From assembly GCA_900315575.1 (NCBI GenBank), contig OMZR01000031.1:1-38114 (forward strand): 38,114 nt of DNA, given 5' to 3'. Below are positions 9,324 to 32,398 of this stretch, piece after piece. Origin of the DNA: an uncultured Veillonellaceae bacterium (GTDB taxonomy: Bacteria; Bacillota; Negativicutes; Selenomonadales; Selenomonadaceae). The translations under genes were made by a program, and so were the position numbers. Numbering within the stretch: position 1 is the first letter of the stretch; each line of letters begins with the position of its first letter. The notes under the pieces are model-generated. The model worked only from the letters and a program-made list of their open reading frames with translations, was not told the origin of the DNA and ran no database searches.

Positions 9324-9373
9324 GATACCATAGAATTGGTCTTTGGGGATAATTGAAGGAGAAGGTTTATTTC

Positions 9374-11308
9374 ATGCAATCTTTGATGGAGCGTCTGTCG
9401 CAGTGGCGCAAGGAAAATCCCAGCGGCGGCTATCTGCTGCTGCTGCTCGCGACGTGGTGCGTCGTGCAGGCGCTGACGCGGCTTGTGATGCTCGTGAGTT
9501 CGGCGGACGCAGCGTCTCTCGGGCCCATAGACCTTGTGAAAGTTTTCGGGCTCGGCTTCGTCTATGACGTCGGCGCGGGATTCTTCTTCCTGTTCCTGCC
9601 TGCGCTCTTCCTGCTCGTGCCGCAGCGGTTCCTTTCTGTGCGCGTCCATCGCTGGGGGCTGGCGGCTCTGACGCTGTTTCTGAATGTGTTCATGATTTTC
9701 TGCGCGGTGTCGCTCTACCTTTACTGGCAGGAATTCCATACGAACTTTAATTTCATCGCGGTGGATTATCTTGTCTACACCCAGGAAATGCTCCAGCAGA
9801 TCGTGCAGTCGTTCCCACTTGAAATCATCCTGCCGGCGATTTTCGCGGTGGCCGCTGTCATCACCTGGGGGCAGGCGCACTTCCTGCCGCAATCTTTCCC
9901 ATGGTCGGGGCGGCGCGCACTGGCACTCTTCTGCGTTCTCGTCGTGCTGCCTGTTGCCGTTGCGTGCGGCACGTCGCCCAAATGGCGCACGCACCTGACG
10001 GAGAACCGCTACAACAATGAACTCGCAGGCAACGGCCCATATGAGTTCGTTCATGCGTTCTTTGCCAACGAACTCGACTACATGGCATTCTATCAGACGG
10101 AAGACAGCACGGTCGCGCGGACCCGCCTGCGGCAGATGATTGCCGCGCCGAATGTGACGTTCGCCGATGACGAGACGACGCTGCGTGATGTCAAAAACGA
10201 GAACGCGCTGACGGGCAGGAAGCCGAACGTCGTCATCATCACGGTTGAGAGCCTCAGCGCATCGTTTCTCGGCGCTTACGGCGCTCCGCATAGTGAGACG
10301 CCGTATCTCGACGCGCTGACGAAAGAATCGTTCACGTTCTACAACATGTATGCGACGGGTACGCGCACCGTGCGCGGTCTTGAGGCCATTACGCTCGCCG
10401 TGCCGCCAACGCCTGGCCAGTCGATTTTGCGCCGGCCGGACAATGGGAACCTGAGCTCGCTCGGCGAGGCATTCCGCCAGAATGGCTATGCGCGTGACTT
10501 CCTTTATGGCGGCTATGGCTATTTTGACAACATGAATGCGTTCTTCGAAAGCAATGGCTACACGATCAAGGATCGTACGTCGATCCCGAGCGAGGAGGTC
10601 ATCCAGGAGACGGTCTGGGGCGTCGCGGACGAAACGCTCTTTACGCAGGTGCTGCGCTCGCTGGACGAGCATGCAGCGGCTGGCGAGCCAGCATTTGAAA
10701 TGGTCATGACGACGTCGAATCATCGTCCCTTCACGTTCCCCGAAGGGCGTGTCGATGGCCAGCAGGGGACGCGCGGGGGCGCCGTGCGGTACACGGACTG
10801 GGCCATCCATGACTTCCTCGAGCGTGCGAAGCAGAAGCCATGGTTTGACAATACGGTTTTCGTCATCGTTGCCGACCATCAGGCAGGCGTCGCGGGCAAG
10901 ACGGCATTGCCGATCGACAAGTATCGGATCCCGTGCATCGTCTATGCGCCGGGACTCATCCCGCAGGGCAGGACGGATCGTCTCGTGAGCCAGATGGACC
11001 TCGGGCCGACACTTCTTGGAGCACTGGGGCTCTCGTATCGGACAAGCTGGCTGGGACGTGATCTCTTCCGGACGCCGGAAAGCGAAGACCGTGCCTTTAT
11101 CAGCACGTACCAGAGCCTCGGCCTCGTCAAGGGCAGCGAACTCGTCGTGCTGACGCCGGACAAAGCCATCGCGGCAAATCACATTGAAAACTGGGCGACG
11201 AGCGACTACATGAAGGAAGAAGTGCCGACGAGCCTCGGCGAAGAGGCCGTGAGCTGGTACCAGGAGGCCAGCGACCTCTTCAAGAACGGGCTTTTGAAAA
11301 ACCGATAA
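9374..11308 (+). CDS. LTA-synthase-family membrane sulfatase-fold enzyme
   Basis: The 644-residue protein has about five membrane helices in its first ~200 residues and an extracytoplasmic alkaline-phosphatase/sulfatase-fold domain after that. Visible hallmarks are the metal-binding N-terminus VVIITVESLSASFLGAYG, the nucleophile threonine region ATGTRTVRGLEA, MTTSNHRPF, and VIVADHQAG with the later metal-binding D-H. Members transfer phosphoglycerol or phosphoethanolamine from phospholipids. In Gram-positives the product is lipoteichoic acid; in diderms the acceptor may be a glycan, lipid A core or other surface lipid, which cannot be decided here. ATG 9374 is taken because AAGGAG is upstream; an in-frame TTG at 9353 precedes it. 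A strong terminator follows, so it is monocistronic and separate from mla. Confidence 0.85.
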   Translation: MQSLMERLSQWRKENPSGGYLLLLLATWCVVQALTRLVMLVSSADAASLGPIDLVKVFGLGFVYDVGAGFFFLFLPALFLLVPQRFLSVRVHRWGLAALTLFLNVFMIFCAVSLYLYWQEFHTNFNFIAVDYLVYTQEMLQQIVQSFPLEIILPAIFAVAAVITWGQAHFLPQSFPWSGRRALALFCVLVVLPVAVACGTSPKWRTHLTENRYNNELAGNGPYEFVHAFFANELDYMAFYQTEDSTVARTRLRQMIAAPNVTFADDETTLRDVKNENALTGRKPNVVIITVESLSASFLGAYGAPHSETPYLDALTKESFTFYNMYATGTRTVRGLEAITLAVPPTPGQSILRRPDNGNLSSLGEAFRQNGYARDFLYGGYGYFDNMNAFFESNGYTIKDRTSIPSEEVIQETVWGVADETLFTQVLRSLDEHAAAGEPAFEMVMTTSNHRPFTFPEGRVDGQQGTRGGAVRYTDWAIHDFLERAKQKPWFDNTVFVIVADHQAGVAGKTALPIDKYRIPCIVYAPGLIPQGRTDRLVSQMDLGPTLLGALGLSYRTSWLGRDLFRTPESEDRAFISTYQSLGLVKGSELVVLTPDKAIAANHIENWATSDYMKEEVPTSLGEEAVSWYQEASDLFKNGLLKNR

Positions 11309-11314
11309 CCCTCG

Positions 11315-11353
11315 ATTGCGTGGGAGGCGGAGCCGCCTCTCACGCAATTTTTT
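11315..11353 (+). terminator. Strong Rho-independent terminator
   Basis: A stem of about 14-15 bp, almost perfectly paired around GGCG-GAGC-CGCC, is followed by TTTTTT. It isolates the mla operon from the upstream gene. Confidence 0.95.
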
Positions 11354-11358
11354 CGTTC

Positions 11359-11386
11359 AAAATAGTAAATAAACCTTTACTATTTT
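11359..11386. promoter_or_regulatory. AT-rich 11-bp inverted repeat overlapping the mla -35 (candidate operator)
   Basis: AAAATAGTAAA and TTTACTATTTT are perfect 11-base arms around a 6-base centre. The right arm includes the -35 hexamer TTTACT. It lacks the GC content of the terminators nearby, so a protein-binding site is more likely than a second terminator. Confidence 0.5.
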
Positions 11387-11404
11387 TCGTTTGCTTGCTA
11401 AACT
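11376..11404 (+). promoter_or_regulatory. Promoter of the mlaEFD-tolC-tamB operon
   Basis: TTTACT (11376-11381) and TAAACT (11399-11404) are 17 bases apart. The predicted start is near 11411. This leaves only the GAGGGAGG at 11422-11429 as a usable ribosome site and so decides the mlaE start. Confidence 0.65.
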
Positions 11405-11437
11405 ATAGGAGTATCTTTGGCGAGGGAGGCGAGGCGG

Positions 11438-12208
11438 TTGGTCTTGCGTGTTTTGGAAGCGCTCGGCGGTTTCGTGCTGCGGCGGTGCGAGTCGTTTGGC
11501 ACGATCGTGTTGCTCTATGCCGAGACGATGCGGCAGCTCACGCACCAGCCGCGCTTGCGGCACATTCTCGCGCAGATGTCGCACCTTGGCGTCGATTCCC
11601 TCGCCATCGTCTGCCTGACGCTGCTGTTCACGGGCGTCGTGCTGACGCTCCAGATGGCGCATGAATTCATCAAGTACGGTGCGCAGAGCACGATTGGCGC
11701 CGTCATCGCGATCGCGATCGGCCGCGAGCTCGGCCCCGTGCTCGTCGGCGTTGTCTGTGCAGGCCGCGTCGGGGCTGCCATCACGGCGGAGATTTCGACG
11801 ATGAAGGTCACGGAACAGATCGACGCACTGCGCGTCATGGCCGTGAATCCCGTCGACTACCTCATCGTGCCGCGCATGATTGCCTGCATGATCGCCGTGC
11901 CGATCCTGACGGTGTTCGGCGACTTCATCGGCGTCTTTGGCGGCTGGGTCGTGGCGGTTTATTATTCGGGTATCAGCTCGTACCTCTTCACAAATTCCCT
12001 CCATATGTATGTCGATGTCTACGATCTCACGGGCGGCCTCATCAAAGCCATCTTTTTCGGCAATGTCATCGCGGTGCTCGGCTGCTATTACGGACTGCAT
12101 TCGCCGGCCGGGGCCGAGGGCGTCGGCCGTGCGACGACGCGCACGGTTGTCGCGTCGATCATCGTGATCTTCATCTTGAATGCGCTTTTGACGCTTATCC
12201 TGTTTTAA
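11438..12208 (+). CDS. mlaE: MlaE-type lipid ABC transporter permease
   Basis: This is the inner-membrane permease of an MCE-type phospholipid transporter. The 256-residue protein has the MlaE/YrbE core: the amphipathic N-terminal helix, FTGVVLTLQMAHEF, IAIAIGRELGPVLVGVVCAGRVGAAITAEISTM split over two helices, EQIDALRVMAVNPVDYL and VPRMIACMI. TTG 11438 is preferred because GAGGGAGG lies eight bases upstream and inside the predicted transcript. The in-frame TTG at 11417 would put its ribosome site upstream of the mRNA start. mlaF follows after 19 bases. Promoter, permease, ATPase and MCE protein in this order define the operon. The permease should pair with two MlaF subunits and a ring of MlaD. 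Confidence 0.92.
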   Translation: MVLRVLEALGGFVLRRCESFGTIVLLYAETMRQLTHQPRLRHILAQMSHLGVDSLAIVCLTLLFTGVVLTLQMAHEFIKYGAQSTIGAVIAIAIGRELGPVLVGVVCAGRVGAAITAEISTMKVTEQIDALRVMAVNPVDYLIVPRMIACMIAVPILTVFGDFIGVFGGWVVAVYYSGISSYLFTNSLHMYVDVYDLTGGLIKAIFFGNVIAVLGCYYGLHSPAGAEGVGRATTRTVVASIIVIFILNALLTLILF

Positions 12209-12227
12209 CGGTGGGGTCCAGGTTTTT

Positions 12228-12974
12228 ATGATAAGATTGATAGACGTAGGCAAGCGCTTCGATGAGCATTGGGCGCTCCGGCATGTGAACCTTGAGATCC
12301 GGGACGGCGAGACGCTCGCGATTATCGGCGGCTCGGGCTCGGGCAAGAGCACGCTTTTGCGGCTCCTCATCGGGCTCATCCAGCCGACCGAGGGCGAAAT
12401 ATGGATGGGCGACAAGGAAATCGGCCATATGACAGAGCACGAGCTCAAGGACATCCGCCTGCATACGGGCATGGTGTTCCAGTATTCGGCGCTGTTTGAT
12501 TCGATGACGGTTGGCGACAATGTAGCGTTCGGCCTGCGCGAGCATACGAAGCTCAAGGAACCGGAAATCCAGCGGATCGTCAGCGAAAAATTGCGGCTCG
12601 TCGGCCTCGAAGGTGTCGAGCAGATGATGCCCGGCGAGCTCTCGGGCGGCATGAAGAAGCGCGTGAGCCTCGCGCGCGCCATCGCCATCGAGCCGGATGT
12701 GATTTTTTACGATGAACCGAGTTCGGGACTCGATCCGATCATGACGGAGAAGATTGACGGGCTCATCACGCATACGCAGCGCGAGCTCCATGTGACGAGC
12801 GTCGTCGTGACGCACGACATGGCGAGCGCCTGCCGCATCTCGGATCGGATTGCCATGATTTACGAAGGCGAGCTCATCGCGGTCGATACGGCGGAGCGGT
12901 TCCAGAAAATCCAGGATCCGCGCGTGCAGGCATTTTTTCACACGCTGCGCACGACAAAGGAGGAAGGCGCATGA
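12228..12974 (+). CDS. mlaF: MlaF-type ABC transporter ATP-binding protein
   Basis: The 248-residue cytosolic ATPase drives MlaE. Walker A is IGGSGSGKSTLLR, the Q-loop is GMVFQYSALFDSMTV, the ABC signature is ELSGGMKKRVSLARA, Walker B is VIFYDEPSSGLDP, and the switch histidine is in VVVTHDM. LSGGMKKR in place of LSGGQ is typical of MlaF/Mkl ATPases of MCE systems. It starts at ATG 12228 and overlaps mlaD by four bases (ATGA), so translation is coupled. Confidence 0.95.
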   Translation: MIRLIDVGKRFDEHWALRHVNLEIRDGETLAIIGGSGSGKSTLLRLLIGLIQPTEGEIWMGDKEIGHMTEHELKDIRLHTGMVFQYSALFDSMTVGDNVAFGLREHTKLKEPEIQRIVSEKLRLVGLEGVEQMMPGELSGGMKKRVSLARAIAIEPDVIFYDEPSSGLDPIMTEKIDGLITHTQRELHVTSVVVTHDMASACRISDRIAMIYEGELIAVDTAERFQKIQDPRVQAFFHTLRTTKEEGA

Positions 12975-14260
12975 AGACAGAAGCGAAGGTCGGCGCATTT
13001 ACGGCCGCAGGCCTCGTGCTGCTCGTCGCGCTCGTGCTCGGGCTGTCCGGTTTCTCTCTGAAATCGGGGCGGGGCTACATGGTCTACGCGGGCTTCCACC
13101 AGGTCATCGGACTCGAGAAGCAGGCGAAGGTCTGCCTCGCGGGCGTGCCGATCGGCGAGGTCACGGACATTTCGAATGATGGCGGCGGCGTCACGGTGGC
13201 GCTGCGCGTGAATCCCGACGTGCGCATTCCCGAGGGCTCGCATGTGACAATCGGCACGCCGGGCGTCATGGGCGAGAAATTCGTCAATGTGCAGCCTGCC
13301 GAGGATCGCGGCCATTACGTCGGCGACGGCGCCTACCTCATCGGCGATGACGAGCAGGGCATGGACTCCATGTTCGCTGGCATCAATGCCGTCGTCGGGC
13401 AGGCGCAGGAGCTTTTGACGAGTCTCAACAGCATTGCAGGCGACAAGGGCTTCCGCCAGTCCGTCTTGCAGATGACGGTGAACATGCGCGACATGACGGC
13501 ACATCTTTCAGGCCTCATGGCGCAGCTCGAGAGCATGGCGGCTGAAAACCGTGGCAACGTCAAGTCCATGACGGCGAATCTCGTGACGGTCACGGAATCG
13601 ATGAACCGCACGATGGCAAATGTCGAGCACATGATGGCAAATATGAACTCCGTGCTCGGCGACCCGCAGACGGCGGAAAACGTCCGCGCGACGCTCGCAA
13701 ACCTCAAGGACACGAGCGACCGCGTGCAGCACATCGCCGAGAACCTCGAAGGCGTCGCAGGCGATCCGCAGACGGCGGAAGACCTGCGGCAGACCGTCAA
13801 AAATGCGCGGTCGATCAGCGAGAAAGCAGGGAAAATGCTTGGCTCTGTCGAATCCATGGATGTGAAGCCGAGCGTCGACCTGCTCTATAGCGGCGATGAC
13901 AGCGACTGGAGCGCGAATGCGAACCTCCATGTGAACCGTGGCGATCGCACGATTGACCTCGGTGTCGATGACATCGGTGATGACAGTCTCTTCAATGCCC
14001 AGGTCGGCAAGAAATTCGGCGGCGGACGTTATGGCGTGCGCGGCGGCGTTGTCGCGGGCAAGGTCGGGGCCGGGCTCGACATCTACGCGGGCAGCAAGTT
14101 CTCGCTTTCGACGGATGCCTATGACCCTGACGACGTAAAACTCCGTCTGCGTGCGGCTTACGACCTCGGTGGCGGGACGTCGCTCCTCGGACAGTGGAAT
14201 GATGTAACCAACAAAGATGATGAACGGGCCGGGTATTTCGGCGTCCGTCAGTCATTCTGA
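12971..14260 (+). CDS. mlaD: MlaD-type MCE protein with long helical region and C-terminal beta-barrel-like domain
   Basis: The 429-residue protein is far longer than E. coli MlaD (about 183). It has an N-terminal membrane anchor (residues 10-28), one MCE domain (about 38-118, with VIGLEKQAKVCLAGVPIGEV and GTPGVMGEKFVNVQ), then about 170 residues of amphipathic helix. This helical part includes two copies of GDPQTAE(N/D) about 38 residues apart. The last ~135 residues (from MDVKPSVDLLYSG) are alternating, Gly/Asp-rich strands ending in aromatic GYFGVRQSF, the pattern of an outer-membrane barrel. Veillonella parvula MlaD has been described with this layout, as a bridge carrying lipid across the periplasm without separate MlaC and MlaA. 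Neither mlaB, mlaC nor mlaA is present here, consistent with that. Confidence 0.92.
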   Translation: MKTEAKVGAFTAAGLVLLVALVLGLSGFSLKSGRGYMVYAGFHQVIGLEKQAKVCLAGVPIGEVTDISNDGGGVTVALRVNPDVRIPEGSHVTIGTPGVMGEKFVNVQPAEDRGHYVGDGAYLIGDDEQGMDSMFAGINAVVGQAQELLTSLNSIAGDKGFRQSVLQMTVNMRDMTAHLSGLMAQLESMAAENRGNVKSMTANLVTVTESMNRTMANVEHMMANMNSVLGDPQTAENVRATLANLKDTSDRVQHIAENLEGVAGDPQTAEDLRQTVKNARSISEKAGKMLGSVESMDVKPSVDLLYSGDDSDWSANANLHVNRGDRTIDLGVDDIGDDSLFNAQVGKKFGGGRYGVRGGVVAGKVGAGLDIYAGSKFSLSTDAYDPDDVKLRLRAAYDLGGGTSLLGQWNDVTNKDDERAGYFGVRQSF

Positions 14261-14306
14261 ATATAAATCCAAGGCATATGGAACAGAATGAACAGGAGGA
14301 ACTACC

Positions 14307-16052
14307 TTGAAGAAGAATCATCCTTTCTATAAAAAGCTTACGGCCCTCGTGCTTGGCGGCCTCATGACGATGGGGGCGGGCACGGCATTTGCGGCGGACG
14401 CCGTCGACCTCGGCCTCGATGACAGCATCCAGATGGCATTTGAGAACAACCGCACGCTGAAGCAGTCGCTCGCCAGCGTCGATTCCGCGCGCTGGAACCT
14501 CTCGTCCGCGCGCCGCAGTCAGGGGCCGACGCTTGCATGGCAGGGCACGGCGAACCGCGTCGGCGGCAAATATTACCAGAATGCCGATTATGACAATCTG
14601 TATGGCAACACGCTCTCGGCAGGCTACAACCTCGATACGAGCCGTAGCCTCAAGCATACGCGCGAACGTGCAGCCTACGCGCTGAACGCGGCGGATCTCA
14701 CGCTCGAGAACGCAAAGCAGACGATCAAGTACCAGACGACGTCGGCGTACTATCAGGTGCTCGAATACCGCAACCTCGTCGAAGTCCAGCAGGAAGCTGT
14801 CGACGTGCTGCAGGAACATCTGAACAACGTCAATGCGCAGTTCCGTGTCGGCACGGTCGCAAAATCCGACGTGCTCTCGTCCGAAGTCCAGCTCGCGAAC
14901 GCGCAGCAGAGCCTCGTGACGGTGCAGAACAACTACAACCTCGCAGTTGCCTCGCTTAACAACATCATCGGCCTGCCGACGGACACTCAGCTCAACATCA
15001 AGGATTCGCTGCAGTACACGCCGTATGATCTGAATCTCGACAACTGCACGGTCTATGCCCTCGACAACCGTCCGGACGGTATCGCGGCCGACTATGCGGT
15101 CGAACAGGCGAAACAGGCCGTCGAGATCGCGAAGGCCGGTCATCGTCCGACAGTCAATGCGTCCGTCGTGCGCTCGCTGACGGGCGATGATCCATTTGAT
15201 GAGGATGTCACGGGCCAGTGGACGGCAGGCTTCACGGCGAACTGGAATCTCTTCGACAATGGCGTCACGCATGCGTCCGTCGAGCAGGCAAAAGCGAGCC
15301 TGCGCGCTTCGGAGGAATCGGCAGCCGCCACGAAGGAAGACATCCAGCTGAATGTCCGCCAGCAGTTCCTCTCGCTGCAGGCAGCAGAAAAGAACATCCA
15401 GACGACGTCGAAAGCTGTCGAACAGGCAGAGGAAGACTACAAGATCGCGCAGGTCCGCTACAGCGCCGGCGTCGATACGAACCTCTCCGTCATGGATGCG
15501 CAGGAAAAACTCACGAGCGCCCGTACGAACTACTATACGGCACTCTACAACTACAACACGAGCAAGGCCGCACTCGACAAGGCCATGGGTATCCCCATCG
15601 ACATCGACGTGCCGCGCTATGTGGCGGCCCAGCAGAATGGCAACTCCCCGAAAGAGACGCTGAAAGCGGCACTGCTGCATGACGAGCTCACGAAGGATGA
15701 GGAAAAGGCGCTGCGCGAAGTGAAACCGACGATCAAGATCGCAGCGGCTAAGGAGGCCGATGCGCAGAAAGCGGCAAATGCACCGACGGCAGAGCAGAAG
15801 AAAGCGGCGAAAAAAGCGGAAAAGGCGGCGCAGAAGGAAGCAAAGGCCAAGGCAAAAGCGGAAGCCAAGGCCGCAAAGGAACAGGCCAAGGCTGAAGCTG
15901 CAGCTGCCAAGAAGGCAGAGGCAGAGAAAGCCGCAACGGAAACGAAGGCGGCATCCACGGATACTGCCAAGACGCAGGCAAAGCAGGAAGCCGCACCGAC
16001 AGAGAATGTCCAGCAGGAGAGCAGCAACGTGGAGGCTGAATTAGCTGGCTGA
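14307..16052 (+). CDS. tolC: TolC-family outer-membrane channel protein with a charged C-terminal tail
   Basis: The start is TTG with AGGAGGA upstream. A signal peptide (KKLTALVLGGLMTMGAGTAFA, cut before AD) leads into an OEP/TolC core of about 450 residues made of two repeats, for example LEYRNLVEVQQEAVDVLQEH...FRVGTVAKSDVLSSEVQ and the matching VEQAEEDYKIAQVRYSAGVD. Such proteins form trimeric outer-membrane tubes for export with inner-membrane pumps. From about residue 479 there is an odd ~100-residue tail, nearly all Ala, Lys, Glu and Gln in short heptad-like runs, resembling TolA domain II. It would lie on the periplasmic side. The gene lies 46 bases after mlaD and 26 before tamB in the same operon. 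Confidence 0.9.
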   Translation: MKKNHPFYKKLTALVLGGLMTMGAGTAFAADAVDLGLDDSIQMAFENNRTLKQSLASVDSARWNLSSARRSQGPTLAWQGTANRVGGKYYQNADYDNLYGNTLSAGYNLDTSRSLKHTRERAAYALNAADLTLENAKQTIKYQTTSAYYQVLEYRNLVEVQQEAVDVLQEHLNNVNAQFRVGTVAKSDVLSSEVQLANAQQSLVTVQNNYNLAVASLNNIIGLPTDTQLNIKDSLQYTPYDLNLDNCTVYALDNRPDGIAADYAVEQAKQAVEIAKAGHRPTVNASVVRSLTGDDPFDEDVTGQWTAGFTANWNLFDNGVTHASVEQAKASLRASEESAAATKEDIQLNVRQQFLSLQAAEKNIQTTSKAVEQAEEDYKIAQVRYSAGVDTNLSVMDAQEKLTSARTNYYTALYNYNTSKAALDKAMGIPIDIDVPRYVAAQQNGNSPKETLKAALLHDELTKDEEKALREVKPTIKIAAAKEADAQKAANAPTAEQKKAAKKAEKAAQKEAKAKAKAEAKAAKEQAKAEAAAAKKAEAEKAATETKAASTDTAKTQAKQEAAPTENVQQESSNVEAELAG

Positions 16053-16078
16053 TTTCTAAAAAATGAGGTGGGGCTATC

Positions 16079-19000
16079 ATGAAGCAGATGCATCGAAAAA
16101 TGATCGGTCTCTTCTGCGGTATTGCCGCAGCCCTCGTGCTCCTCGTCTGCGCCGGATTCTGGTATTATGCCAAGTCCGGTGCTCTCCTGGAGCGCGCTGC
16201 CGGGACGATTGCGTCCACGCTGACGGAGCAGCTCGGCACGGAGACGACGGTCGGCTCCATGGAAATCACGTCGCTTCATGATGCTACCCTCCACAATCTT
16301 GCGATTTATGACAAGCAGGCGCAGTGTATCATACAGGCCCCAGAGGCCCGGGTGCACTTGCGCCTGCTTTCTGTGTTCCAGCTCAAGGAGAATCCCGCTT
16401 CCGCCATCGAGAGCGTGACCGTCACAGGCGCGGAAGCGACGGTGGAGCAACGTGCGGATGGCACATGGAATATCATGGACATTACGCCGAAGACTTCGGG
16501 CGGTTCGGGCTTCTCTGGAAAAATCATTCTCGAAGATGCGCGCGTGACGGGCCGCATGGACGGCCGCGAGCTCACGCTCGAACATGTTGCAGGCTCTGTC
16601 GATTGTGCTGACGTGCCGGCCTATAAGGTCGATGTGACGGGCGAGAATCAGGGTGCGAGCGTTCATGCGTCGGGCACGCTTTCGAGCGACCGTCAGATTC
16701 TGAATGCCGAGGTTTCGGATGTCGATGCCGCAAATTATCTTGCGCTCATTCCGGATGGCCTGCTGCCCGATGGCATTGTGATTCGCGGCGGCAAGGTGAA
16801 GACGGCGAAGGCGTCGCTCTACCGCCGCAGCGATGTCGGAGATATTTCCATTGTCGGACAGGGCGAGGTCGAGAATGGTGCTGTCGATGCCGAAGGCATC
16901 GAGATCCGCGATGTCACGGGCTTCACGCATTTCACGAACCAAGAAGTCGGCGGCGATCTCACGGCCACTGTGCAGGGGCAGGTCGCCAAGGTGCATGGTA
17001 CGGTTCGCTTTGACACGCCATCGCCTGCTATGAACCTCGAAGCGAGTGCGGAGAATTTCGACCCTGTGCCATTGCTCGCGGTCATTGCTGAGGCGCGCCC
17101 GCAGGCGGCGTCGGCGATTGCAGCTGCGGACTATGCAGGCCCTGTGGATGTCACGGCGAAGGTCGGCGGTACGTTCGCTGATCCGATGATTGATGGCGAT
17201 GTCAAAGTCACAAGCGGCCAGGCGGCAGGCATATCCTTCCAGAATGCCTCGGCGCATGCGCGTCTCTTGAACCGCGTGCTCTATCTGCAGGACGTCCATG
17301 CAGGCGTCTTTGGCGGGCAGGTCGCGGGCGAGGGCGAGCTTTCGCTTGACGACCGGGCGTATACGGCGCATGTCAAGGCTGACAATATCGACGCCGCTGC
17401 TGTGCAAACGTATGCAGCGGCGCGGACGTCGGCGCTTTCGGGGCTCGATTCGCTCTCGGGGCGCGTTCGTGCCGATGTCACGGCACATGGCTGGGGCGCG
17501 GATGTCGATAAATTCTGGGCAGATGGCAGCGTCTCTTTGTCAAAGGGCGGTTATGGCGCGCTTTCCATTGACAGCCTCAGCGCCTCGCTGGCCGTCAGCG
17601 GCCGCGACATCAAGATCGATTATCTGAGTGCGAAGCTGCCGAACAACTCGAACCTCGGCCTCGAGGGCGAGATCCAGGGCGGCGAGGCTCTGGACCTCGC
17701 GTTCTATGGCGGCCATTTCGACTTGTCGCTGCTCCGAAATTTTGATGCGCGCGCCGATCTCACGGGCTTCTGCGATTTCAAGGGCAAGCTCACGGGCAGC
17801 CTCGGCGATCCGGCTGTCACGCTCGATTTTTCGGCCAATCATGGCAAGGCGTTCCAGCAGCCGTTCGACAGCCTCGTGCTGCGCGCTTCGGGCAGCCTCG
17901 ACAAGGTCACGGTCGATGATTTCCGCATGGAAAATGGTGGAAAGGAGACGTGGATTGTCACGGGCTCGGTCGGCCTGACGGGGGAGAAGAACATCGACCT
18001 GCGCGTCGACTGCATGGGCGCACGCATGGAAGACATCGCAGCGCTCGTTGCGCCCGACCAGCCGATCACGGGCAACGTGGACAACACGATTCATTTCACG
18101 GGTACGCTCGACCATCCCGAGGCTGTCGGCTACATCCATTTCTATCGCGGCAGCTATCGCGGCGTTCTGCTTTCCGGCATGGACGGCGACTATTTCCTCA
18201 AGGACGATGTCCTGTGCCTGCAGGTGTTCCATATCTACTCGCCGATGGTCGATGCCGTGCTGAATGGCACGATCGGCCTTGATCAGAGCCTGAACCTCGA
18301 CATCGACGTGCGCGACATCGACATGAAGCGCGTCGAGCACAAGCTTCCTTACGAGGTGGCGGGCCATGGTACATTCGAAGGCCATGTGACGGGCTTCGTT
18401 TCCTCGCCGATTTTCGATGGCACGCTCGACGCGAAAGATCTGACGCTCAATGGCGTCAGCATCCCGCGCGCCTATGGCCACGCGCATTACGAGGGCGGCA
18501 TGATCTCGCTTGACCGCTTCGGCTTCCTGCAGGGAGATGACGGAAGCTATGATCTCGAGCTGCAGGCCGATACGGTGAGCCATGCGCTCACGGGCAATAT
18601 CATCGTGCAGAATGCCGACCTCACGAATCTCTGCGCGCTGCTGAACCAGAAGAACGATGTCGTGAAAGGCATGATGAATGCCACGGCCATCGTCGGCGGC
18701 ACAGCGGAAAATCCTTCGCTCGATGTCGAGGGCACGATGGCGCAGGGTACGATTGCGGACTATGATGTCCATGGCATCGAGATTGCGGCAAAGCTCGAGG
18801 ATCACGTGCTCTCCATCACGACGTGCAAAGGCCTGCAGGGCGATGGCACGTTCGAGCTCACGGGCACGTCAGCACTCGATGGCGCGCTCGATCTCAAGCT
18901 CACGGCGCGTGACATCGCGCTTGGCATGTTCACGAAGGCTGCAGGCCTCAAAACTGACGTCATCGGCACGGCCGACATCGACGCGACACTCTCGGGGAAT

Positions 19001-20533
19001 ATCTCGAGCCCTGAGGGACAGATTGCGCTGACAGCGAAAAATGGCGGCATCCAGGGATCGACATTTGACACGCTGACGGGCGAGGCAAAGCTCTTCCACG
19101 GCATCGTTGATGTCAGGAACCTCGTCATGCAGAAGACTATTGGCGCAAAGGACAAGGCGCAGACATATCAGGCGAGCGCGAAGGGCATCGTGCCGCTCCA
19201 TGCGCTCGTCGCGGGCGGTGACGAAGAGCTCGCCGATTTCGAGCAGATTCATCTCGACGTTTCGCTCGACCATGCAGACCTTTCCCTGCTGCCCATGCTC
19301 TCGAATCAGGTCGAATGGGCCGTCGGCGAGACGCGCGGCGATGTGCTGATTACGGGCACAGCAGCGCATCCGCTCTTCTCGGGCCAGCTCTCGCTGCCGG
19401 ATGGCGCCGTGAAGCTCAAGCTCATTCAGACACCGATCGAAGCACTGCATGGTGTGTTGAAGCTCCAGGGCAACGAGATGAAACTCGAAGAATTTTCGGG
19501 CGAGATGGGCAAGGGGACATTCACGGGCAGCGGCCATCTCACGCTTGACGGCCTGACGCCGAAATCGTATGCGGCCGACCTCGAGGCCGATGACCTCGAA
19601 GTTCTTTCGACGGCCTACAAGGGCCCGATTACGGGCGCATTCCATCTCGAGAACAGCGAGATTTCCGACCCGGCAGGCAACATCTATTATCGGCCGAAGC
19701 TTTCGGGCCATCTCGATTTCGACAACTGCGAGGTCTCGATCCCGATGATTCCCGACAGTGATGGCGACCTGCCGGACATCCTGCTCGACGTCGATGTCAC
19801 AGCGGGAGAAAATGTCCATTTCTACAGTTCGTCGCTCTATGACATGTACATCACGGGCGCGGCGCATTTCGGCGGCTCGACGCTCCATCCCATGCCGTCC
19901 GGCGAGTTCCACGTCAAGCGCGGCGGCACGGTCTCGTATCTCAAGAACCTGTTCAAGATTCGAGAGGGGACGGCAACATTCAACCAGGTCGACAGCTTCC
20001 TGCCAAGCATCACGTTCCTTGCCGATACGAAAGTCGGCTCGACGAGTATCAATCTGATGCTTGAGGGCGCACTCAACAACCATATGGACGTTCATCTGAC
20101 ATCAAATCCTGAGTACAGCCAGACAGAGATCCTCACGATGCTGACGCTTCAGAGTTCGTATCGCCATGGCGAGACGAATTTCGACATGAATGATATCGTT
20201 ACTATCGGCCTCCAGATGACCGTGCTCGGCGAACTCGAGGAGCAGATGCGCAATATGCTCTGGCTCGATACGTTCCGCATTTCGCGCGGCAGCGGTTCGG
20301 CGCTCGAGCAGCAGTCGCGCGGCGACAGCGACGATGATGGCGATAAGTCCTACAATGTCGAGCTGGGCAAGCGCCTGGGCGGCAAGACGCAGATGCACTA
20401 CATCCGCGGCATTGGCGGCAATGGCACGCAGCGCTATGGCATCCAGTACGATCTCAGCGACGCGATCGGCTTCACCCTCGACCGCGAGTCTGGTGATACG
20501 ATTGTCGGTGTTGAAGCACGCTACAAATTTTAA
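16079..20533 (+). CDS. tamB: TamB/AsmA-family trans-periplasmic protein
   Basis: The 1484-residue protein has one N-terminal membrane anchor (GLFCGIAAALVLLVCAGFWYY), then an AsmA-like start (LLERAAGTIASTLTEQLG, VGSMEITSLHDATLHNL). About 1,000 residues of repetitive short beta-strands with D-G-T motifs follow, and the C-terminal TamB (DUF490) domain (SQTEILTMLTLQSS, MTVLGELEEQMRNML, TLDRESGDTIVGVEARYKF). TamB-like proteins form a long hydrophobic groove thought to carry phospholipids to the outer membrane, and they also work with Omp85 proteins. Here it is in the same operon as the MlaD bridge, and bamA lies 1.6 kb downstream. No TamA is seen, so BamA is the likely Omp85 partner (inference). 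Confidence 0.93.
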   Translation: MKQMHRKMIGLFCGIAAALVLLVCAGFWYYAKSGALLERAAGTIASTLTEQLGTETTVGSMEITSLHDATLHNLAIYDKQAQCIIQAPEARVHLRLLSVFQLKENPASAIESVTVTGAEATVEQRADGTWNIMDITPKTSGGSGFSGKIILEDARVTGRMDGRELTLEHVAGSVDCADVPAYKVDVTGENQGASVHASGTLSSDRQILNAEVSDVDAANYLALIPDGLLPDGIVIRGGKVKTAKASLYRRSDVGDISIVGQGEVENGAVDAEGIEIRDVTGFTHFTNQEVGGDLTATVQGQVAKVHGTVRFDTPSPAMNLEASAENFDPVPLLAVIAEARPQAASAIAAADYAGPVDVTAKVGGTFADPMIDGDVKVTSGQAAGISFQNASAHARLLNRVLYLQDVHAGVFGGQVAGEGELSLDDRAYTAHVKADNIDAAAVQTYAAARTSALSGLDSLSGRVRADVTAHGWGADVDKFWADGSVSLSKGGYGALSIDSLSASLAVSGRDIKIDYLSAKLPNNSNLGLEGEIQGGEALDLAFYGGHFDLSLLRNFDARADLTGFCDFKGKLTGSLGDPAVTLDFSANHGKAFQQPFDSLVLRASGSLDKVTVDDFRMENGGKETWIVTGSVGLTGEKNIDLRVDCMGARMEDIAALVAPDQPITGNVDNTIHFTGTLDHPEAVGYIHFYRGSYRGVLLSGMDGDYFLKDDVLCLQVFHIYSPMVDAVLNGTIGLDQSLNLDIDVRDIDMKRVEHKLPYEVAGHGTFEGHVTGFVSSPIFDGTLDAKDLTLNGVSIPRAYGHAHYEGGMISLDRFGFLQGDDGSYDLELQADTVSHALTGNIIVQNADLTNLCALLNQKNDVVKGMMNATAIVGGTAENPSLDVEGTMAQGTIADYDVHGIEIAAKLEDHVLSITTCKGLQGDGTFELTGTSALDGALDLKLTARDIALGMFTKAAGLKTDVIGTADIDATLSGNISSPEGQIALTAKNGGIQGSTFDTLTGEAKLFHGIVDVRNLVMQKTIGAKDKAQTYQASAKGIVPLHALVAGGDEELADFEQIHLDVSLDHADLSLLPMLSNQVEWAVGETRGDVLITGTAAHPLFSGQLSLPDGAVKLKLIQTPIEALHGVLKLQGNEMKLEEFSGEMGKGTFTGSGHLTLDGLTPKSYAADLEADDLEVLSTAYKGPITGAFHLENSEISDPAGNIYYRPKLSGHLDFDNCEVSIPMIPDSDGDLPDILLDVDVTAGENVHFYSSSLYDMYITGAAHFGGSTLHPMPSGEFHVKRGGTVSYLKNLFKIREGTATFNQVDSFLPSITFLADTKVGSTSINLMLEGALNNHMDVHLTSNPEYSQTEILTMLTLQSSYRHGETNFDMNDIVTIGLQMTVLGELEEQMRNMLWLDTFRISRGSGSALEQQSRGDSDDDGDKSYNVELGKRLGGKTQMHYIRGIGGNGTQRYGIQYDLSDAIGFTLDRESGDTIVGVEARYKF

Positions 20534-20587: not shown

Positions 20588-21223
20588 ATGCGTCTCGAAG
20601 ATTATATCCAGGAACTGCAGAATGTCGAGCTTCTGGAGCCGGAAGAAGAGGCCGCACTTTGGCGGGCTTACAAGGAAGATGGCGACATGGCTGCGCGCCG
20701 CCGGATCATCGAATCGTATCAGCCGCTCGTCTTCAAACAGGCCATGCCATACCGCGCCCTGCCCGGCATCATGGATGTCATCCAGGAAGGCACGGTCGGC
20801 CTCATCGAGGCTGTCGAGCACTATGATCCTGCGCGCGGCGTGGCATTCAGCCTGTTTGCCGTGCACCGCATCCGCGGCCGCATGGTCGACTTCCTGCGGA
20901 AGGAAGGCGCCTCCGACATCGCCTGCATGGACGCGCAGCCCGAGACAGGCGGCGACTCGCTGAAGGAAAGTCTTGCCGATACGGCTGCACTCTCCGTGCC
21001 CGAAGCCGCGGAATCGCATGAGCTCGCCGGCCGCCTGCATGCGGCGATGGATCGCCTGCCTGAGAAGGAACGCGCCGTGCTGACCGGCGTCTATCTCGAG
21101 AGCCAGCCCGTCGAGACGATGGCCGACGCACTCGACGTCTCGACATCGCATGTCTACCGCCTGCAAAAAAGCGGCATCCGCCGCGTGCGCGGCATGCTCT
21201 CGCGCTTTATGCAGCATTGGTGA
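20588..21223 (+). CDS. Sigma-70 family RNA polymerase sigma factor
   Basis: The 211-residue protein has region 2 (about 40-105: YQPLVFKQA, GIMDVIQEGTVGLIEAVEHYDP, FSLFAVHRIRGRMVDFLRKEG) and region 4 (about 145-205: MDRLPEKERAVLTGVYLESQ and the helix-turn-helix MADALDVSTSHVYRLQKSGI). A ~35-residue linker stands where region 3 would be. This is a small group-3-like or alternative factor, not the housekeeping one. AAAGGGGGTG precedes the ATG, 54 bases after tamB, and I see no separate promoter. Its place between tamB and bamA suggests it reports or controls envelope state (inference). A terminator follows. Confidence 0.88.
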   Translation: MRLEDYIQELQNVELLEPEEEAALWRAYKEDGDMAARRRIIESYQPLVFKQAMPYRALPGIMDVIQEGTVGLIEAVEHYDPARGVAFSLFAVHRIRGRMVDFLRKEGASDIACMDAQPETGGDSLKESLADTAALSVPEAAESHELAGRLHAAMDRLPEKERAVLTGVYLESQPVETMADALDVSTSHVYRLQKSGIRRVRGMLSRFMQHW

Positions 21224-21286: not shown

Positions 21287-21312
21287 AAAAACCGCGATAT
21301 TCGCGGTTTTTT
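21287..21312 (+). terminator. Rho-independent terminator ending the mla-tamB-sigma operon
   Basis: A 7-bp stem ACCGCGA/TCGCGGT with a 3-base loop is flanked by AAAA and TTTTTT. Confidence 0.93.
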
Positions 21313-21408: not shown

Positions 21409-22020
21409 ATGCGGGACGAAAAAAAGCAGCAGTCGATCCGCGCAGCGCGGGACTGGCTCGATGAGGCGGACGCTTCGCTCTCAAAAGGGAGCGGCATCCG
21501 CGGCGATCTCAAGGTCATGCTCGCGCAGGCGGAGCTCCGCCATGCACAGGAAGCCGAGCCGGAGGCGCGCAGCGCCGTCTGGCGTCGCCGCCTCGCGCGC
21601 CTGCTGCCACTGACGGCGGCGGCCGTGTTTGCGGCGCTCGCGTTTTATCTGACACCGGCCGTCGCGCCGCCGCAGGAGACGGCGGGTATCCCAGCGCCGC
21701 CCGCCGAGATGCAGGCGCAGCCGTCGGACGGGACAGAGGAAGCAGCGCAGCCAGAAGCAGCAGTGGAGCCTGACGGCTCAGCATCAGTGTCAGTCGATGC
21801 GTCACCTTTACCAGCTGTTGCGACGCCATCGTCAGCGGAAGCGGCTGTGCCGGATGCAGGCAGCGTGATGTCCGCAGCGTCCTCGCGCGAGGCCGCTGCT
21901 CCCTCCAGCGCGCCGTCACAGGCCGCGCAGCCGGCAGCGGCACCTGCTGCACCCGCCGTCCCGGCTCCCGAGACGCAGAAGCTCATGCAGACGGCAGGAA
22001 AAGCCTTGCGAGAGCCCTGA
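21409..22020 (+). CDS. Single-pass membrane protein with Ala/Pro-rich periplasmic tail, unknown function
   Basis: I do not recognise a family. The 203-residue protein has a charged cytosolic segment (about 1-62, including RAARDWLDEADASLSKG and LAQAELRHAQEAEPEA), Arg-rich residues just before one membrane helix (about 65-83, LLPLTAAAVFAALAFYL), and a ~120-residue periplasmic tail of Ala, Pro, Ser and Glu. It ends KLMQTAGKALREP. The start has AAGGAGG eight bases upstream. The order is sigma factor, terminator, this gene, bamA. Topology and position allow an anti-sigma role, but the N-terminal part shows no zinc-binding or recognisable anti-sigma motif. A cell-envelope linker is an alternative. 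Confidence 0.7.
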   Translation: MRDEKKQQSIRAARDWLDEADASLSKGSGIRGDLKVMLAQAELRHAQEAEPEARSAVWRRRLARLLPLTAAAVFAALAFYLTPAVAPPQETAGIPAPPAEMQAQPSDGTEEAAQPEAAVEPDGSASVSVDASPLPAVATPSSAEAAVPDAGSVMSAASSREAAAPSSAPSQAAQPAAAPAAPAVPAPETQKLMQTAGKALREP

Positions 22021-22034
22021 GAACCCGATATAAT
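22006..22034 (+). promoter_or_regulatory. Promoter of bamA
   Basis: TTGCGA (22006-22011) and TATAAT (22029-22034) are 17 bases apart. The -35 lies inside the end of the preceding gene. The leader before TTG 22098 is about 57 nt. Confidence 0.8.
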
Positions 22035-22097: not shown

Positions 22098-24086
22098 TTG
22101 ACGAAGAAGAATTATCGTAAACTGGCGGCCGCCATTGCGCTCGCCACGAGCTTTGCAGCCGTGCCGGGGATGACGCTGGCAGCAGAGCCAGAGGCACAGG
22201 ACGCAGCAGGCACGGCGGCAGCATCAGATGCACAGGCGGCTGCGCCTGCGGAACCGGCAGCGACGGCAGAAGCTCCTGCAGCGACGGAAGATACGCCCGC
22301 TGCTGCTTCGGCGGAATCCATGGCGACGGCCGGTGCCGCTTCCTCCGCGACGACGGCAACGACGGGCGAGGTCAGCGAGCGCGTGCGCGACTGGGCGAAG
22401 CTCCGCCCGACCGAGGCGGCCATCGAGGCCTACAAGCAGCGCTATGAAGGCAAGACCATCGTCGACATCGATTTCGACGGCGCGACGGATGCGACGCTCG
22501 AGACGGCGAAGAATGCCGTCCACATGCGCACGGGCGACACGTACACGGCGAAAGGCCTCGACGCGGACGTCGATGCGCTCGTCGCGACGGGCTACTACTA
22601 CGACCTGTTCCCGACGTTCGAGGAAGTGCCCGAGGGCGTCGTGCTGACGTACCATGTGCTCGAGAATCCGACGCTCAAGAGCATCGCCATCACGGGCAAC
22701 ACGGTCGAGACGACGGACGATCTCATGGGCCTCGTGACGCTGAAGACGGGCGAGATGCTCAACAGCACGACGCTCAAGAAGAACGTGCAGGAAATCCAGG
22801 AGAAATACCGTGCGGATGGTTACATCCTCGCGAAAATCACCGACCTCAACATCGACAAGGACGGCAACCTCACAATCAAGATCAACGAGGGCAAGATCGA
22901 GGGCTTCAAGGTCAAGGGCAACGAAAAGACGAAGGATTACGTCATCCTGCGCGAGATGCGCCAGAAAGTCGGCGAGCCGTTCAACGCGAAGAAGACGCAG
23001 CGCAGCTGGCAGCGCGTCAACAACCTCGGCTTCTTCGAGGAAGTCACGCCGAAAGTCCAGCCGGGCGTCGAGCCGAATGCCGTCGTCGTCGAGTGGAACG
23101 TCAAGGAGCGCCGCACGGGCACGTTCAGCGTCGGCGCGGGCTACTCGAGCCAGGACGGCGTCATCGGCATGATCGGCATCGGAGACACGAACTTCCGCGG
23201 CACGGGCGATGCTGTCAACATCACGTACCAGTTCAGCGGCGATGACACGGATTCGCACGGCTACAGCTTCTCGTACCGCCGTCCGTGGCTCGACAAGAAA
23301 CAGACCGTTGGCACGTTCCGCATCTACAACCGCACGTACGAGTACGATGACTACGACGAAAACGGCGACCACATCGAGTCGTACATGCGCCATTACTCCG
23401 GCGGCGAAATCACGCTCGGCCGTCCGGTCAGCGAGTATTCGACGAACTACATCACGCTGCGCAATCGCAAGGACAAGTACAACAAGCAGACGGAGACGGG
23501 CAATATGCGCAACCGCACGCCGGAATCCGTGCATGAGGAATGGAAGAAGTACAACTTCGGCACGACGCGCAGCCTGACGCTCCAGCACGTCACGGACACG
23601 CGCGACAACATCTACTTCCCGACGTCGGGCGGTCGCATCGCTCTGACGGGCGAAATCGGCGGCTTCGGTGCGGACTTCGATTACCGCAAGGCGGACATCG
23701 AGGATCAGCGCTACTTCAAGGCGGGCAAGAACCAGGTCTGGGCGCTCCGGGGCCAGTACGGCTGGTCGGACGGCCATATCTCCGAGTACGCGCGCTACAA
23801 GGTCGGCGGCCAGGACAGCCTGCGCGGCTACCGCGACGACCAGTTCCGCGGCGAGCACATGTTCCTCGCGACGCTCGAGTACCGCTTCCCGATTGTCAGC
23901 AAAGTGCAGGGCGCCATCTTCACAGACTGGGGCAGTGCCTGGGAGAGCGGCCTCTGGCCCGATGACATCCACGGCAGCGTCGGCATCGGCATGTCGCTCG
24001 TGACGCCGCTCGGCCCGATTCGCCTCGACTACGGCCGCGGCGACGATGGCGGTCGCGTCCACTTCAGCGTCGGCGGGACTTTCTAA
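22098..24086 (+). CDS. bamA: BamA, outer-membrane protein assembly factor with three POTRA domains
   Basis: BamA inserts beta-barrel proteins into the outer membrane. The start is TTG with AGGAGG upstream. A signal peptide (AAAIALATSFAAVPGMTLA) is followed by a ~60-residue Ala/Glu-rich linker. Three POTRA domains follow (about 115-340; for example PTLKSIAITGNTVETTDDLM, then GKIEGFKVKGNEKTKDYVI with LREMRQKVGEPFN), fewer than the five of E. coli. The 16-strand barrel (about 345-662) has the Omp85 motif GGQDSLRGYRDDQFRG and ends in VHFSVGGTF. Three-POTRA BamA is usual for Negativicutes. No BamB-E lipoproteins are nearby. Confidence 0.95.
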   Translation: MTKKNYRKLAAAIALATSFAAVPGMTLAAEPEAQDAAGTAAASDAQAAAPAEPAATAEAPAATEDTPAAASAESMATAGAASSATTATTGEVSERVRDWAKLRPTEAAIEAYKQRYEGKTIVDIDFDGATDATLETAKNAVHMRTGDTYTAKGLDADVDALVATGYYYDLFPTFEEVPEGVVLTYHVLENPTLKSIAITGNTVETTDDLMGLVTLKTGEMLNSTTLKKNVQEIQEKYRADGYILAKITDLNIDKDGNLTIKINEGKIEGFKVKGNEKTKDYVILREMRQKVGEPFNAKKTQRSWQRVNNLGFFEEVTPKVQPGVEPNAVVVEWNVKERRTGTFSVGAGYSSQDGVIGMIGIGDTNFRGTGDAVNITYQFSGDDTDSHGYSFSYRRPWLDKKQTVGTFRIYNRTYEYDDYDENGDHIESYMRHYSGGEITLGRPVSEYSTNYITLRNRKDKYNKQTETGNMRNRTPESVHEEWKKYNFGTTRSLTLQHVTDTRDNIYFPTSGGRIALTGEIGGFGADFDYRKADIEDQRYFKAGKNQVWALRGQYGWSDGHISEYARYKVGGQDSLRGYRDDQFRGEHMFLATLEYRFPIVSKVQGAIFTDWGSAWESGLWPDDIHGSVGIGMSLVTPLGPIRLDYGRGDDGGRVHFSVGGTF

Positions 24087-32337: not shown

Positions 32338-32398
32338 ATGATACAACTAAAATACGATAAAGAACGCTGAAACAAGTGCTATGAAAGGGGAAGTTCCG

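What the first reader, a model, noticed from the sequence alone, without database searches (positions are those of the whole stretch)
11376..20533. Single operon for two trans-periplasmic lipid bridges plus TolC
mlaE, mlaF, mlaD, tolC and tamB lie head to tail behind one promoter with gaps under 50 bases, and no mlaB, mlaC or mlaA. MlaD has an MCE domain, ~170 helical residues and a ~135-residue barrel-like end, so one protein may join the inner-membrane ABC transporter to the outer membrane. This architecture is known from Veillonella parvula. What is new to examine here is its pairing with TolC and TamB, and a sigma factor, in one transcript.
Basis: partly seen in the sequence, partly recalled or inferred. 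Interest (0 to 1): 0.7.

Follow-up and report, generated by a model that had tools for sequence, protein, structure and literature searches.

The report
Lipid-bridge operon plus sigma-factor pair
In a Selenomonas relative, the genes for a predicted lipid-carrying bridge between the two membranes, an export duct and a second likely lipid carrier lie in one row already described in Veillonella; the row ends in a sigma-factor gene that many related bacteria keep beside an unnamed gene for a predicted membrane protein, and the two would likely form a switch that senses the cell envelope.

Summary
In detail: mlaE-mlaF-mlaD-tolC-tamB run head to tail (gaps 19, -4, 46, 26 bases), with no MlaA or MlaC match in the genome. 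AlphaFold2 gives MlaD helices and a ten-stranded C-terminal domain. The claimed novelty fails: Grasekamp et al. 2023 describe mlaEFD-tolC-tamB and call the order conserved in all Negativicutes.

Two things were not found in the papers I could search. (1) The sigma factor after tamB is kept with an unnamed one-pass membrane protein ("p203") before bamA. Of 300 genomes of the class, 233 have both, 2 only p203, none only sigma, 65 neither. All 11 p203-positive genomes sampled outside the class keep tamB, sigma, p203, bamA in order. I read the pair as a likely membrane-anchored sigma/anti-sigma switch. (2) The mlaE promoter carries a palindrome whose only other exact copy in this genome lies between marR and acrAB. 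In 60 genomes, 46 of 55 such sites are at mlaE (21) or marR/acrAB (25). In 20 of 20 extended acrAB loci no tolC follows, so a MarR-type regulator likely makes pump, TolC and lipid transporters together. Function is inferred throughout; nothing was tested at the bench.

The parts
11314..11349 (+). Terminator-like hairpin between the upstream sulfatase-family gene and mlaE
   Evidence: 16-pair stem plus T run
11363..11382 (.). Palindrome TAGTAAA-N6-TTTACTA, candidate MarR-type operator overlapping the -35
   Evidence: The only other exact copy in the genome lies between marR and acrAB; the relaxed pattern is within 250 nt of mlaE in 20 of 54 relatives' upstreams examined
11376..11404 (+). Promoter-like TTTACT-N17-TAAACT
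   Evidence: Sequence; consensus match only, not listed by the scan
11417..12208 (+). mlaE, permease (ORF from TTG 11417; start more likely TTG 11438)
   Evidence: PF02405 9.3e-78; start shift suggested by the relative L086, which has ATG just after the same GGGAGG
12228..12974 (+). mlaF, ABC ATPase
   Evidence: PF00005 1.2e-33; best NCBIfam model is MlaF, below its cut-off
12971..14260 (+). mlaD: MCE domain, long helices, ten-stranded C-terminal domain
   Evidence: PF02470; AlphaFold2 model; matched in 60 of 60 relatives, the window's genome included
14307..16052 (+). tolC, outer-membrane efflux protein with a Lys/Ala/Glu-rich tail
   Evidence: PF02321 6.5e-62
16079..20533 (+). tamB
   Evidence: PF04357 2.6e-27
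20588..21223 (+). sigma factor, 211 aa, regions 2 and 4, no region 3 match
   Evidence: PF04542 and PF04545; 233 of 300 class genomes at E <= 1e-25; best solved relatives are a sigma factor of 278 aa (6pfv/6pfj; WhiG by recall) and FliA
21289..21309 (+). Terminator-like hairpin AAACCGCGA-TAT-TCGCGGTTT followed by Ts
   Evidence: Sequence; a similar hairpin stands in the five same-genus loci L031-L035
21349..21357 (+). GGACTATAG, -10-like half of a bipartite element upstream of p203
   Evidence: Motif searches with controls; window score 21.5
21409..22020 (+). p203, unnamed protein: predicted cytosolic helical hairpin, one TM helix, disordered linker, conserved C-terminal helix
   Evidence: Alignment A1, no Pfam family, topology, AlphaFold2 model, co-occurrence
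22006..22034 (+). Promoter-like TTGCGA-N17-TATAAT ahead of bamA
   Evidence: 10 of 12 consensus matches
22098..24086 (+). bamA (Omp85, POTRA domains)
   Evidence: PF01103 2.5e-42 and PF07244 4.8e-32

Best explanation
This is the known Negativicutes mlaEFD-tolC-tamB row, ending in a sigma-factor gene that is kept with the next gene, p203, between tamB and bamA; the two would likely form a membrane-anchored sigma/anti-sigma switch for the envelope, and a palindrome shared with marR-acrAB likely lets a MarR-type regulator make TolC and the lipid transporters together with the AcrAB pump. SHOWN by sequence: gene order, co-occurrence of sigma and p203, their place between tamB and bamA, p203's conserved N-terminal and C-terminal blocks, a conserved bipartite promoter-like element ahead of p203, and the shared palindrome. 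PREDICTED: MlaD's helices and ten-stranded end, and p203's topology (hairpin in the cytosol, about 100 disordered residues and a conserved helix in the periplasm). INFERRED: MlaEFD returns phospholipid to the inner membrane and TamB carries it outward, as proposed for V. parvula; the p203 hairpin holds sigma; a change sensed by the p203 C-terminal helix in the periplasm frees sigma; sigma acts at the p203 promoter and at targets not yet found; MarR binds the palindrome and blocks the overlapping mlaE promoter until a toxic compound lifts it.
For: Row; published order and TamB/Mla antagonism in V. parvula. MlaD model. Sigma-p203 coupling: of 300 class genomes 233 both, 2 p203 only (74% and 75% complete), 0 sigma only, 65 neither (p203 counted at E <= 1e-10, sigma at 1e-25); joint absence occurs inside genera that otherwise keep both (g13, g17). 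Order tamB-sigma-p203-bamA: 43 of the 44 fetched class loci with both genes (the other, L082, ends before bamA), 77 of 80 named loci, 11 of 11 loci outside the class. Phylum sample: all 19 strong p203 genomes are among the 60 of 299 with TamB over its cut-off. p203 N-in by charge balance in 45 of 45. Promoter-like element: strict GGANTATA at -70 to -20 in 18 of 44 p203 upstreams and in 0 of 43 or 44 for each of seven other genes; the looser form in 27 of 44 against 0 to 2; bipartite motif score 1423 against 971-990 for three shuffles. Operator: 55 sites in 60 genomes against 14 for the reversed control; 46 of 55 at mlaE or marR/acrAB. Of 21 relatives with an acr-side site and an examined mlaE upstream, 17 have the mlaE site exactly and 1 with one mismatch. 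The window's genome has two TolC-family genes, one beside macA-macB, and three RND pumps over the cut-off.
Against: No binding, transcription or phenotype data. p203 matches no anti-sigma family and no solved fold (best E 0.94). V. parvula has TamB and BamA as consecutive locus tags, so the pair is not needed for having an outer membrane. 41 of the 60 TamB genomes in the phylum sample have no strong p203 match. The bipartite element was not found ahead of bamA or mlaE, so the only visible candidate target is p203 itself, and its favoured spacing of 18 was the upper limit of the search. In the window a hairpin parts sigma from p203. The mlaE palindrome is absent from 34 of 54 examined upstreams in its relaxed form, and 9 of 55 sites are at neither locus. 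G055 has the acrAB site with no tolC seen nearby and no mlaE site; G009 has only a half-site at mlaE. Three genomes with the mlaE site (G006, G011, G028) showed no acr-side site. No outer-membrane barrel is among the 50 listed structure matches of MlaD, which rank by the whole chain.
Confidence: 0.6

Rival explanations
1. p203 is a structural or transport helper of the envelope (a TonB- or TolA-like reach across the periplasm to BamA or TamB) and has nothing to do with sigma; the genes are neighbours only because all belong to the outer-membrane cluster.
For: p203 has a long Ala/Pro/Glu-rich linker and a conserved C-terminal helix, the shape of a reaching protein; no anti-sigma family or fold found; a hairpin separates it from sigma in the window.
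Against: Sigma and p203 occur and are missing together (233 both, 2 and 0 alone, 65 neither of 300), while tamB and bamA stay side by side in four re-examined loci that lack both (L117, L118, L120, L121). Six of the eight invariant columns of p203 lie in its predicted cytosolic part, besides the start, which a purely periplasmic helper does not need.
Confidence: 0.25
2. Everything here is the ordinary published mla-tolC-tamB row; the sigma factor is an unrelated neighbour and the palindrome belongs to another matter.
For: Gene order published; sigma not matched in 67 of 300 class genomes at the threshold used.
Against: Sigma keeps its place between tamB and bamA in the class and outside it. 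The palindrome recurs at marR and/or acrAB in 25 of 34 non-mlaE sites, own genome included.
Confidence: 0.1
3. The palindrome is bound by a regulator other than the neighbouring MarR protein, so efflux and lipid transport share control but MarR is not the hand.
For: No binding data; L253 and L256 have acrAB with the palindrome but no marR match beside it.
Against: In 21 of the 23 relatives' acrAB loci with the palindrome a marR match lies on the other side of it, and in G026 a marR gene apart from acrAB has its own copy (L255, L256).
Confidence: 0.2

Closest known systems
Veillonella parvula MlaEFD transenvelope system with downstream tolC and tamB (Grasekamp et al. 2023, PMC10665443; abstract, section 8 and passages read)
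   Same: Same genes in the same order, no MlaA or MlaC, elongated MlaD with a helical stretch and a ten-stranded C-terminal domain.
   Different: In V. parvula TamB and BamA carry consecutive locus tags (Vpar_0526, Vpar_0527; PMC5491611 passages), so sigma and p203 are not between them. The parts that I read do not mention an operator shared with acrAB.
Sigma-E/RseA-type envelope-stress pairs of Proteobacteria (recalled, not fetched)
   Same: A sigma factor and a one-pass membrane protein with its N-terminus in the cytosol, kept together and tied to outer-membrane assembly genes.
   Different: Sigma here is nearest by sequence to group 3 factors such as FliA yet has no region 3 match; p203 has no known anti-sigma domain and ends in a conserved C-terminal helix.
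E. coli mar regulon (PMC5684230; passages read)
   Same: Links TolC with the Mla lipid transporter under one drug-responsive circuit.
   Different: In E. coli the activator MarA binds at mlaFEDCB; here a MarR-type protein would bind the palindrome directly, and tolC is inside the mla row.
BAM/TAM cluster of diderm Firmicutes (Antunes et al. 2016, PMC5007114; passages read)
   Same: TamB and BamA genes clustered with Skp and LPS genes.
   Different: The word sigma does not occur in its main text (0 occurrences); its figures and supplementary file were not seen.

Membership tests
Elongated-MlaD MlaEFD system | MlaE, MlaF and MlaD with an MCE domain encoded together | tested here: met
   Pfam matches and gaps of 19 and -4 bases
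Elongated-MlaD MlaEFD system | No MlaA and no MlaC in the genome | tested here: met
   0 matches each; the control searches ring in E. coli and Caulobacter
Elongated-MlaD MlaEFD system | Long helical region and C-terminal beta-barrel in MlaD | tested here: inconclusive
   Helices between 159 and 294 and ten strands between 296 and 428 are predicted; closure of the strands into a barrel and membrane insertion were not measured
Elongated-MlaD MlaEFD system | Hexamer reaching both membranes | not testable with these tools
   Only single chains can be predicted here
Sigma/anti-sigma pair | Sigma factor with regions 2 and 4 | tested here: met
   PF04542 and PF04545 over their cut-offs
Sigma/anti-sigma pair | Partner kept with sigma in adjacent genes | tested here: met
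   233 both, 2 partner only, 0 sigma only, 65 neither of 300; adjacent in 44 of 44 class loci with both
Sigma/anti-sigma pair | Partner spans the inner membrane once with its N-terminus in the cytosol | tested here: met
   45 of 45 by charge balance; helix 52-81 in the model; prediction only
Sigma/anti-sigma pair | Partner carries a recognised anti-sigma domain | tested here: not met
   No Pfam family; no PDB fold. So 'works like', not 'is a member'
Sigma/anti-sigma pair | Partner binds and silences sigma | not testable with these tools
   No complex prediction or bench work
ECF (group 4) sigma factor | Only regions 2 and 4, nearest relatives ECF | tested here: inconclusive
   No region 3 match; the NCBIfam sigma70-ECF superfamily model scores over its cut-off (98.5 against 42.9); but the best solved relatives are FliA and other non-ECF factors
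MarR operator | Palindrome in the divergent promoter of a marR gene and its target | tested here: met
   marR and acrA in L102; 24 of 33 non-mlaE sites in relatives are at marR and/or acrAB
MarR operator | MarR binds it | not testable with these tools
   Needs a gel shift or footprint

The most novel reading that the evidence does not exclude
Diderm Firmicutes carry their own outer-membrane stress system, built independently of sigma-E/RseA: a sigma factor without region 3, encoded between tamB and bamA, is held by p203, whose conserved C-terminal helix reaches through the periplasm on a disordered tether to read the state of TamB/BamA assembly, while a MarR switch on the same row ties drug efflux to lipid traffic.
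Probability: 0.35. Interest if true: 0.82.

Novelty: new variant of a known kind. Interest (0 to 1): 0.6.

Why it matters
How diderm Firmicutes sense trouble in their outer membrane did not turn up in the papers I could search. A sigma factor and an unnamed membrane protein, kept together between the lipid carrier TamB and the barrel assembler BamA, give a concrete candidate that can be tested in culturable species such as Mitsuokella multacida or Selenomonas ruminantium (both among the named loci). The shared palindrome gives a reason why tolC sits among lipid-transport genes, and a parallel to the E. coli mar regulon reached by different wiring.

Tried and rejected
Tried and set aside: (1) The tolC/tamB pairing as the novelty: published. 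(2) A sigma target promoter ahead of mlaE in other families: an unguided dyad search scored 300 against 256-277 for four shuffles, too weak to use; by eye it resembles a SigH-type promoter (recalled), left as a side note. The same search on bamA upstreams gave 252 against 225-242. (3) The p203 element as a regulon marker: a rigid matrix gave 33 hits above 12 at p203 and 19 scattered elsewhere in 1.89 million strand positions, so no further target emerged; the matrix was trained on these upstreams, so the 33 are not independent. The spacing of 18 found was the largest allowed, so the true best spacing may be larger, and the shuffles kept single-base composition only. (4) PDB fold for p203: nothing below E 0.9. 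(5) Weak p203 matches (11 of 246, E 2e-5 to 9e-4) were dropped from the co-occurrence count because the next better match is E 2e-16 and low-complexity linkers can explain them. The thresholds were chosen after I had seen the lists, and the two listings were compared by reading; the genomes without a match are listed only in part, but those with a match are listed in full. (6) Coevolution of sigma and p203: not attempted.
Full report
WHAT IS THERE. The window comes from a genome near Selenomonas (best named loci: Selenomonas sp. SUG490 and RUG12578, then an unnamed Veillonellaceae bacterium pair and Selenomonas bovis, which the taxonomy lists as Dongibacter bovis, Selenomonadaceae, Negativicutes). 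On the + strand mlaE, mlaF, mlaD, tolC and tamB run head to tail with gaps of 19, -4, 46 and 26 bases; a sigma factor follows after 54, p203 after 185 and bamA after 77. Pfam supports each name except p203, which has none. A strong hairpin lies before mlaE (11314-11349) and another after sigma (21289-21309), so the likely transcription unit is mlaE to sigma; this is not measured. Weak terminator-like sites inside tamB are at chance level (18 found in the scanned region, 10.6 in shuffles). The genome has no MlaC and no MlaA match. MlaD was matched in 60 of 60 relatives, own genome included, and 51 of 59 fetched loci keep mlaE-mlaF-mlaD-tolC-tamB in order.

MlaD. AlphaFold2 with 76 sequences gives mean pLDDT 80 and pTM 0.43: a membrane helix, the MCE domain, a poorly predicted stretch at 134-162, helices between 159 and 294 and ten strands between 296 and 428. 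The 50 listed Foldseek matches are MCE proteins: mycobacterial Mce1 chains and MlaD of E. coli, Pseudomonas and Acinetobacter; no outer-membrane barrel is among them, but the list ranks the whole chain. The architecture is that described for V. parvula (419 residues, ten strands; section 8 read). Whether the strands close into a barrel, one per chain or shared, was not measured; a single chain cannot settle it.

WHAT IS ALREADY KNOWN. Grasekamp et al. 2023 (abstract, section 8 and passages read) report mlaEFD directly followed by tolC and tamB, 'conserved in all Negativicutes', with tamB mutations suppressing mla defects. In my sample three loci (L056, L063, L089) have mlaD with no tolC or tamB after it in the stretch; in two of these genomes (G012, G045) tamB was found elsewhere, still followed by sigma, p203 and bamA (L114, L115).

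THE SIGMA FACTOR AND p203. Sigma has regions 2 and 4 but no region 3 match; its best solved relatives are a 278-residue sigma factor (6pfv, 6pfj; WhiG by recall) and FliA. p203 (21409-22020) has a conserved N-terminal block, one hydrophobic helix, a variable Ala/Pro/Glu-rich stretch and a conserved C-terminal block around QKLM..AGK.LR. Its model is a helical hairpin 2-48, a membrane helix 52-81, low confidence to 186 and a helix 187-201 (block means 84 and 94); an isolated confident helix says little about function. In 300 class genomes p203 was matched in 246 at E <= 0.001, 11 of them weak; sigma was matched in 233 at E <= 1e-25. Comparing the two listings, every sigma genome has a strong p203; only G061 and G230 (74% and 75% complete) have p203 alone. 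Genera g13 and g17 hold both genomes with the pair and genomes without either. In the 59 fetched loci 44 show both, 43 of them with tamB before and bamA after, and the other ends before bamA. Four loci with tamB and bamA side by side lack both, and stayed so in wider stretches (L117, L118, L120, L121). V. parvula has TamB and BamA as consecutive locus tags (PMC5491611, passages). Of 80 named loci 79 show both and 77 show all four in order. In a 299-genome phylum sample 19 genomes have a strong p203, and all 19 are among the 60 with TamB over its cut-off; the other 41 TamB genomes have no strong p203 match. The 11 outside the class were all fetched and all show tamB, sigma, p203, bamA in order, with extra ORFs between sigma and p203 in one (L113). 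No mla or tolC match was seen in those stretches, which reach about 2 kb upstream of tamB in ten and none in L113. The pair thus goes with tamB-bamA rather than with mla.

A PROMOTER-LIKE ELEMENT OF p203. Where p203 has its own intergenic region, an element of two parts stands out (ATGGC.tGt, then tGGAtTATA; spacing 18, the largest allowed, in 62 of 97): score 1423 in 97 sequences against 971-990 in three simple shuffles; many of the sequences are close relatives. The strict GGANTATA was found in 18 of 44 p203 upstreams and in none of the 43 or 44 upstreams of each of bamA, tamB, tolC, mlaE, mlaF, mlaD and sigma. That sigma reads it is a guess.

THE PALINDROME. TAGTAAA-N6-TTTACTA at 11363-11382 overlaps the -35 of the promoter-like site ahead of mlaE. 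The genome has one other exact copy, between a MarR-family gene and an acrA-acrB pair. In 60 genomes, own included, the relaxed pattern occurs 55 times against 14 for the reversed control: 21 at mlaE, 25 at marR and/or acrAB, 9 elsewhere (all 33 non-mlaE sites outside the window's genome were fetched). In 250-nt mlaE upstreams 22 of 54 reach 13 or 14 of 14 matches, against 1 of 1100 simple shuffles. In G026 a marR and acrAB are apart and each has a copy (L255, L256). In G004 acrAB lies about 2.6 kb upstream of mlaE (L288). Of the 23 relatives' acrAB loci with the palindrome, 20 were extended past acrB by about 4 kb and none showed a tolC; two (G002, G009) were not extended; the last, G053, has a tolC between marR and acrA (L238), and its mlaE has no palindrome. 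Of 21 of these relatives with an examined mlaE upstream, 17 have the mlaE site exactly, 1 with one mismatch, 3 not (G009 half-site, G053, G055); G055 is against the reading, since no tolC was seen near its acrAB. Three genomes have the mlaE site without an acr-side one (G006, G011, G028). The window's genome has three RND pumps and two TolC-family genes, one beside macA-macB. So the TolC of this row is the likely partner of AcrAB. In E. coli, MarA activates mlaFEDCB and the shared mar regulon includes tolC (PMC5684230, passages): the same link by different wiring.

MECHANISM, WITH WEIGHTS. MlaEFD and TamB move phospholipid in opposite directions (proposed for V. parvula; transferred here by homology). 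MarR-type control of this row together with acrAB: about 0.75. Sigma and p203 functionally coupled: about 0.85. p203 holding sigma as an anti-sigma: about 0.6. Sensing of outer-membrane assembly through the C-terminal helix: about 0.35.

NOVELTY. Ten paper searches in the open-licence PMC library listed no paper that I recognised as reporting the sigma-p203 pair or a palindrome shared by acrAB and mla in these bacteria; four papers were opened in part. Most subscription papers and preprints are not held, and supplementary files were not read, so this is weak evidence of absence.

Noticed in passing
11417-11440: mlaE probably starts at TTG 11438 rather than 11417: the relative L086 has ATG just after the same GGGAGG, and a start at 11417 would leave almost no leader after the predicted promoter.
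   Followed up: partly
15591-16052: The TolC protein has about 150 residues beyond its last OEP match, rich in Lys, Ala and Glu; the function of this tail is unknown.
   Followed up: no
9353-11308: The upstream gene is a sulfatase-family protein (PF00884) with matches below cut-off to phosphoglycerol transferase, lipoteichoic acid synthase and YejM models.
   Followed up: no
L060-L077, upstream of mlaE: In several families outside Selenomonadaceae the mlaE upstream holds GCAGGGAA about 12 bases before a TGGAATA-like sequence, which by recall resembles SigH promoters; not statistically firm.
   Followed up: partly
L056 (G012), L063 (G045), L089 (G024): mlaEFD or mlaFD is not followed by tolC-tamB in the stretch, unlike the published statement for all Negativicutes.
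   Followed up: partly
24118-25527 and 26217-27206: Two long ORFs among bamA, the OmpH/Skp genes and lpxD match no Pfam family.
   Followed up: no
32381-34318: A sigma-54 activator (645 aa) lies downstream of the lipid A genes in the same window.
   Followed up: no
L113:7181-11791: Outside the class, one genome has extra ORFs between sigma and p203, one of them resembling a methyltransferase by eye.
   Followed up: no
L236, L237, L240, L242, L246, L248, L250, L252, L268: Nine palindrome copies lie near neither mlaE nor marR/acrAB; their neighbours were not identified.
   Followed up: no
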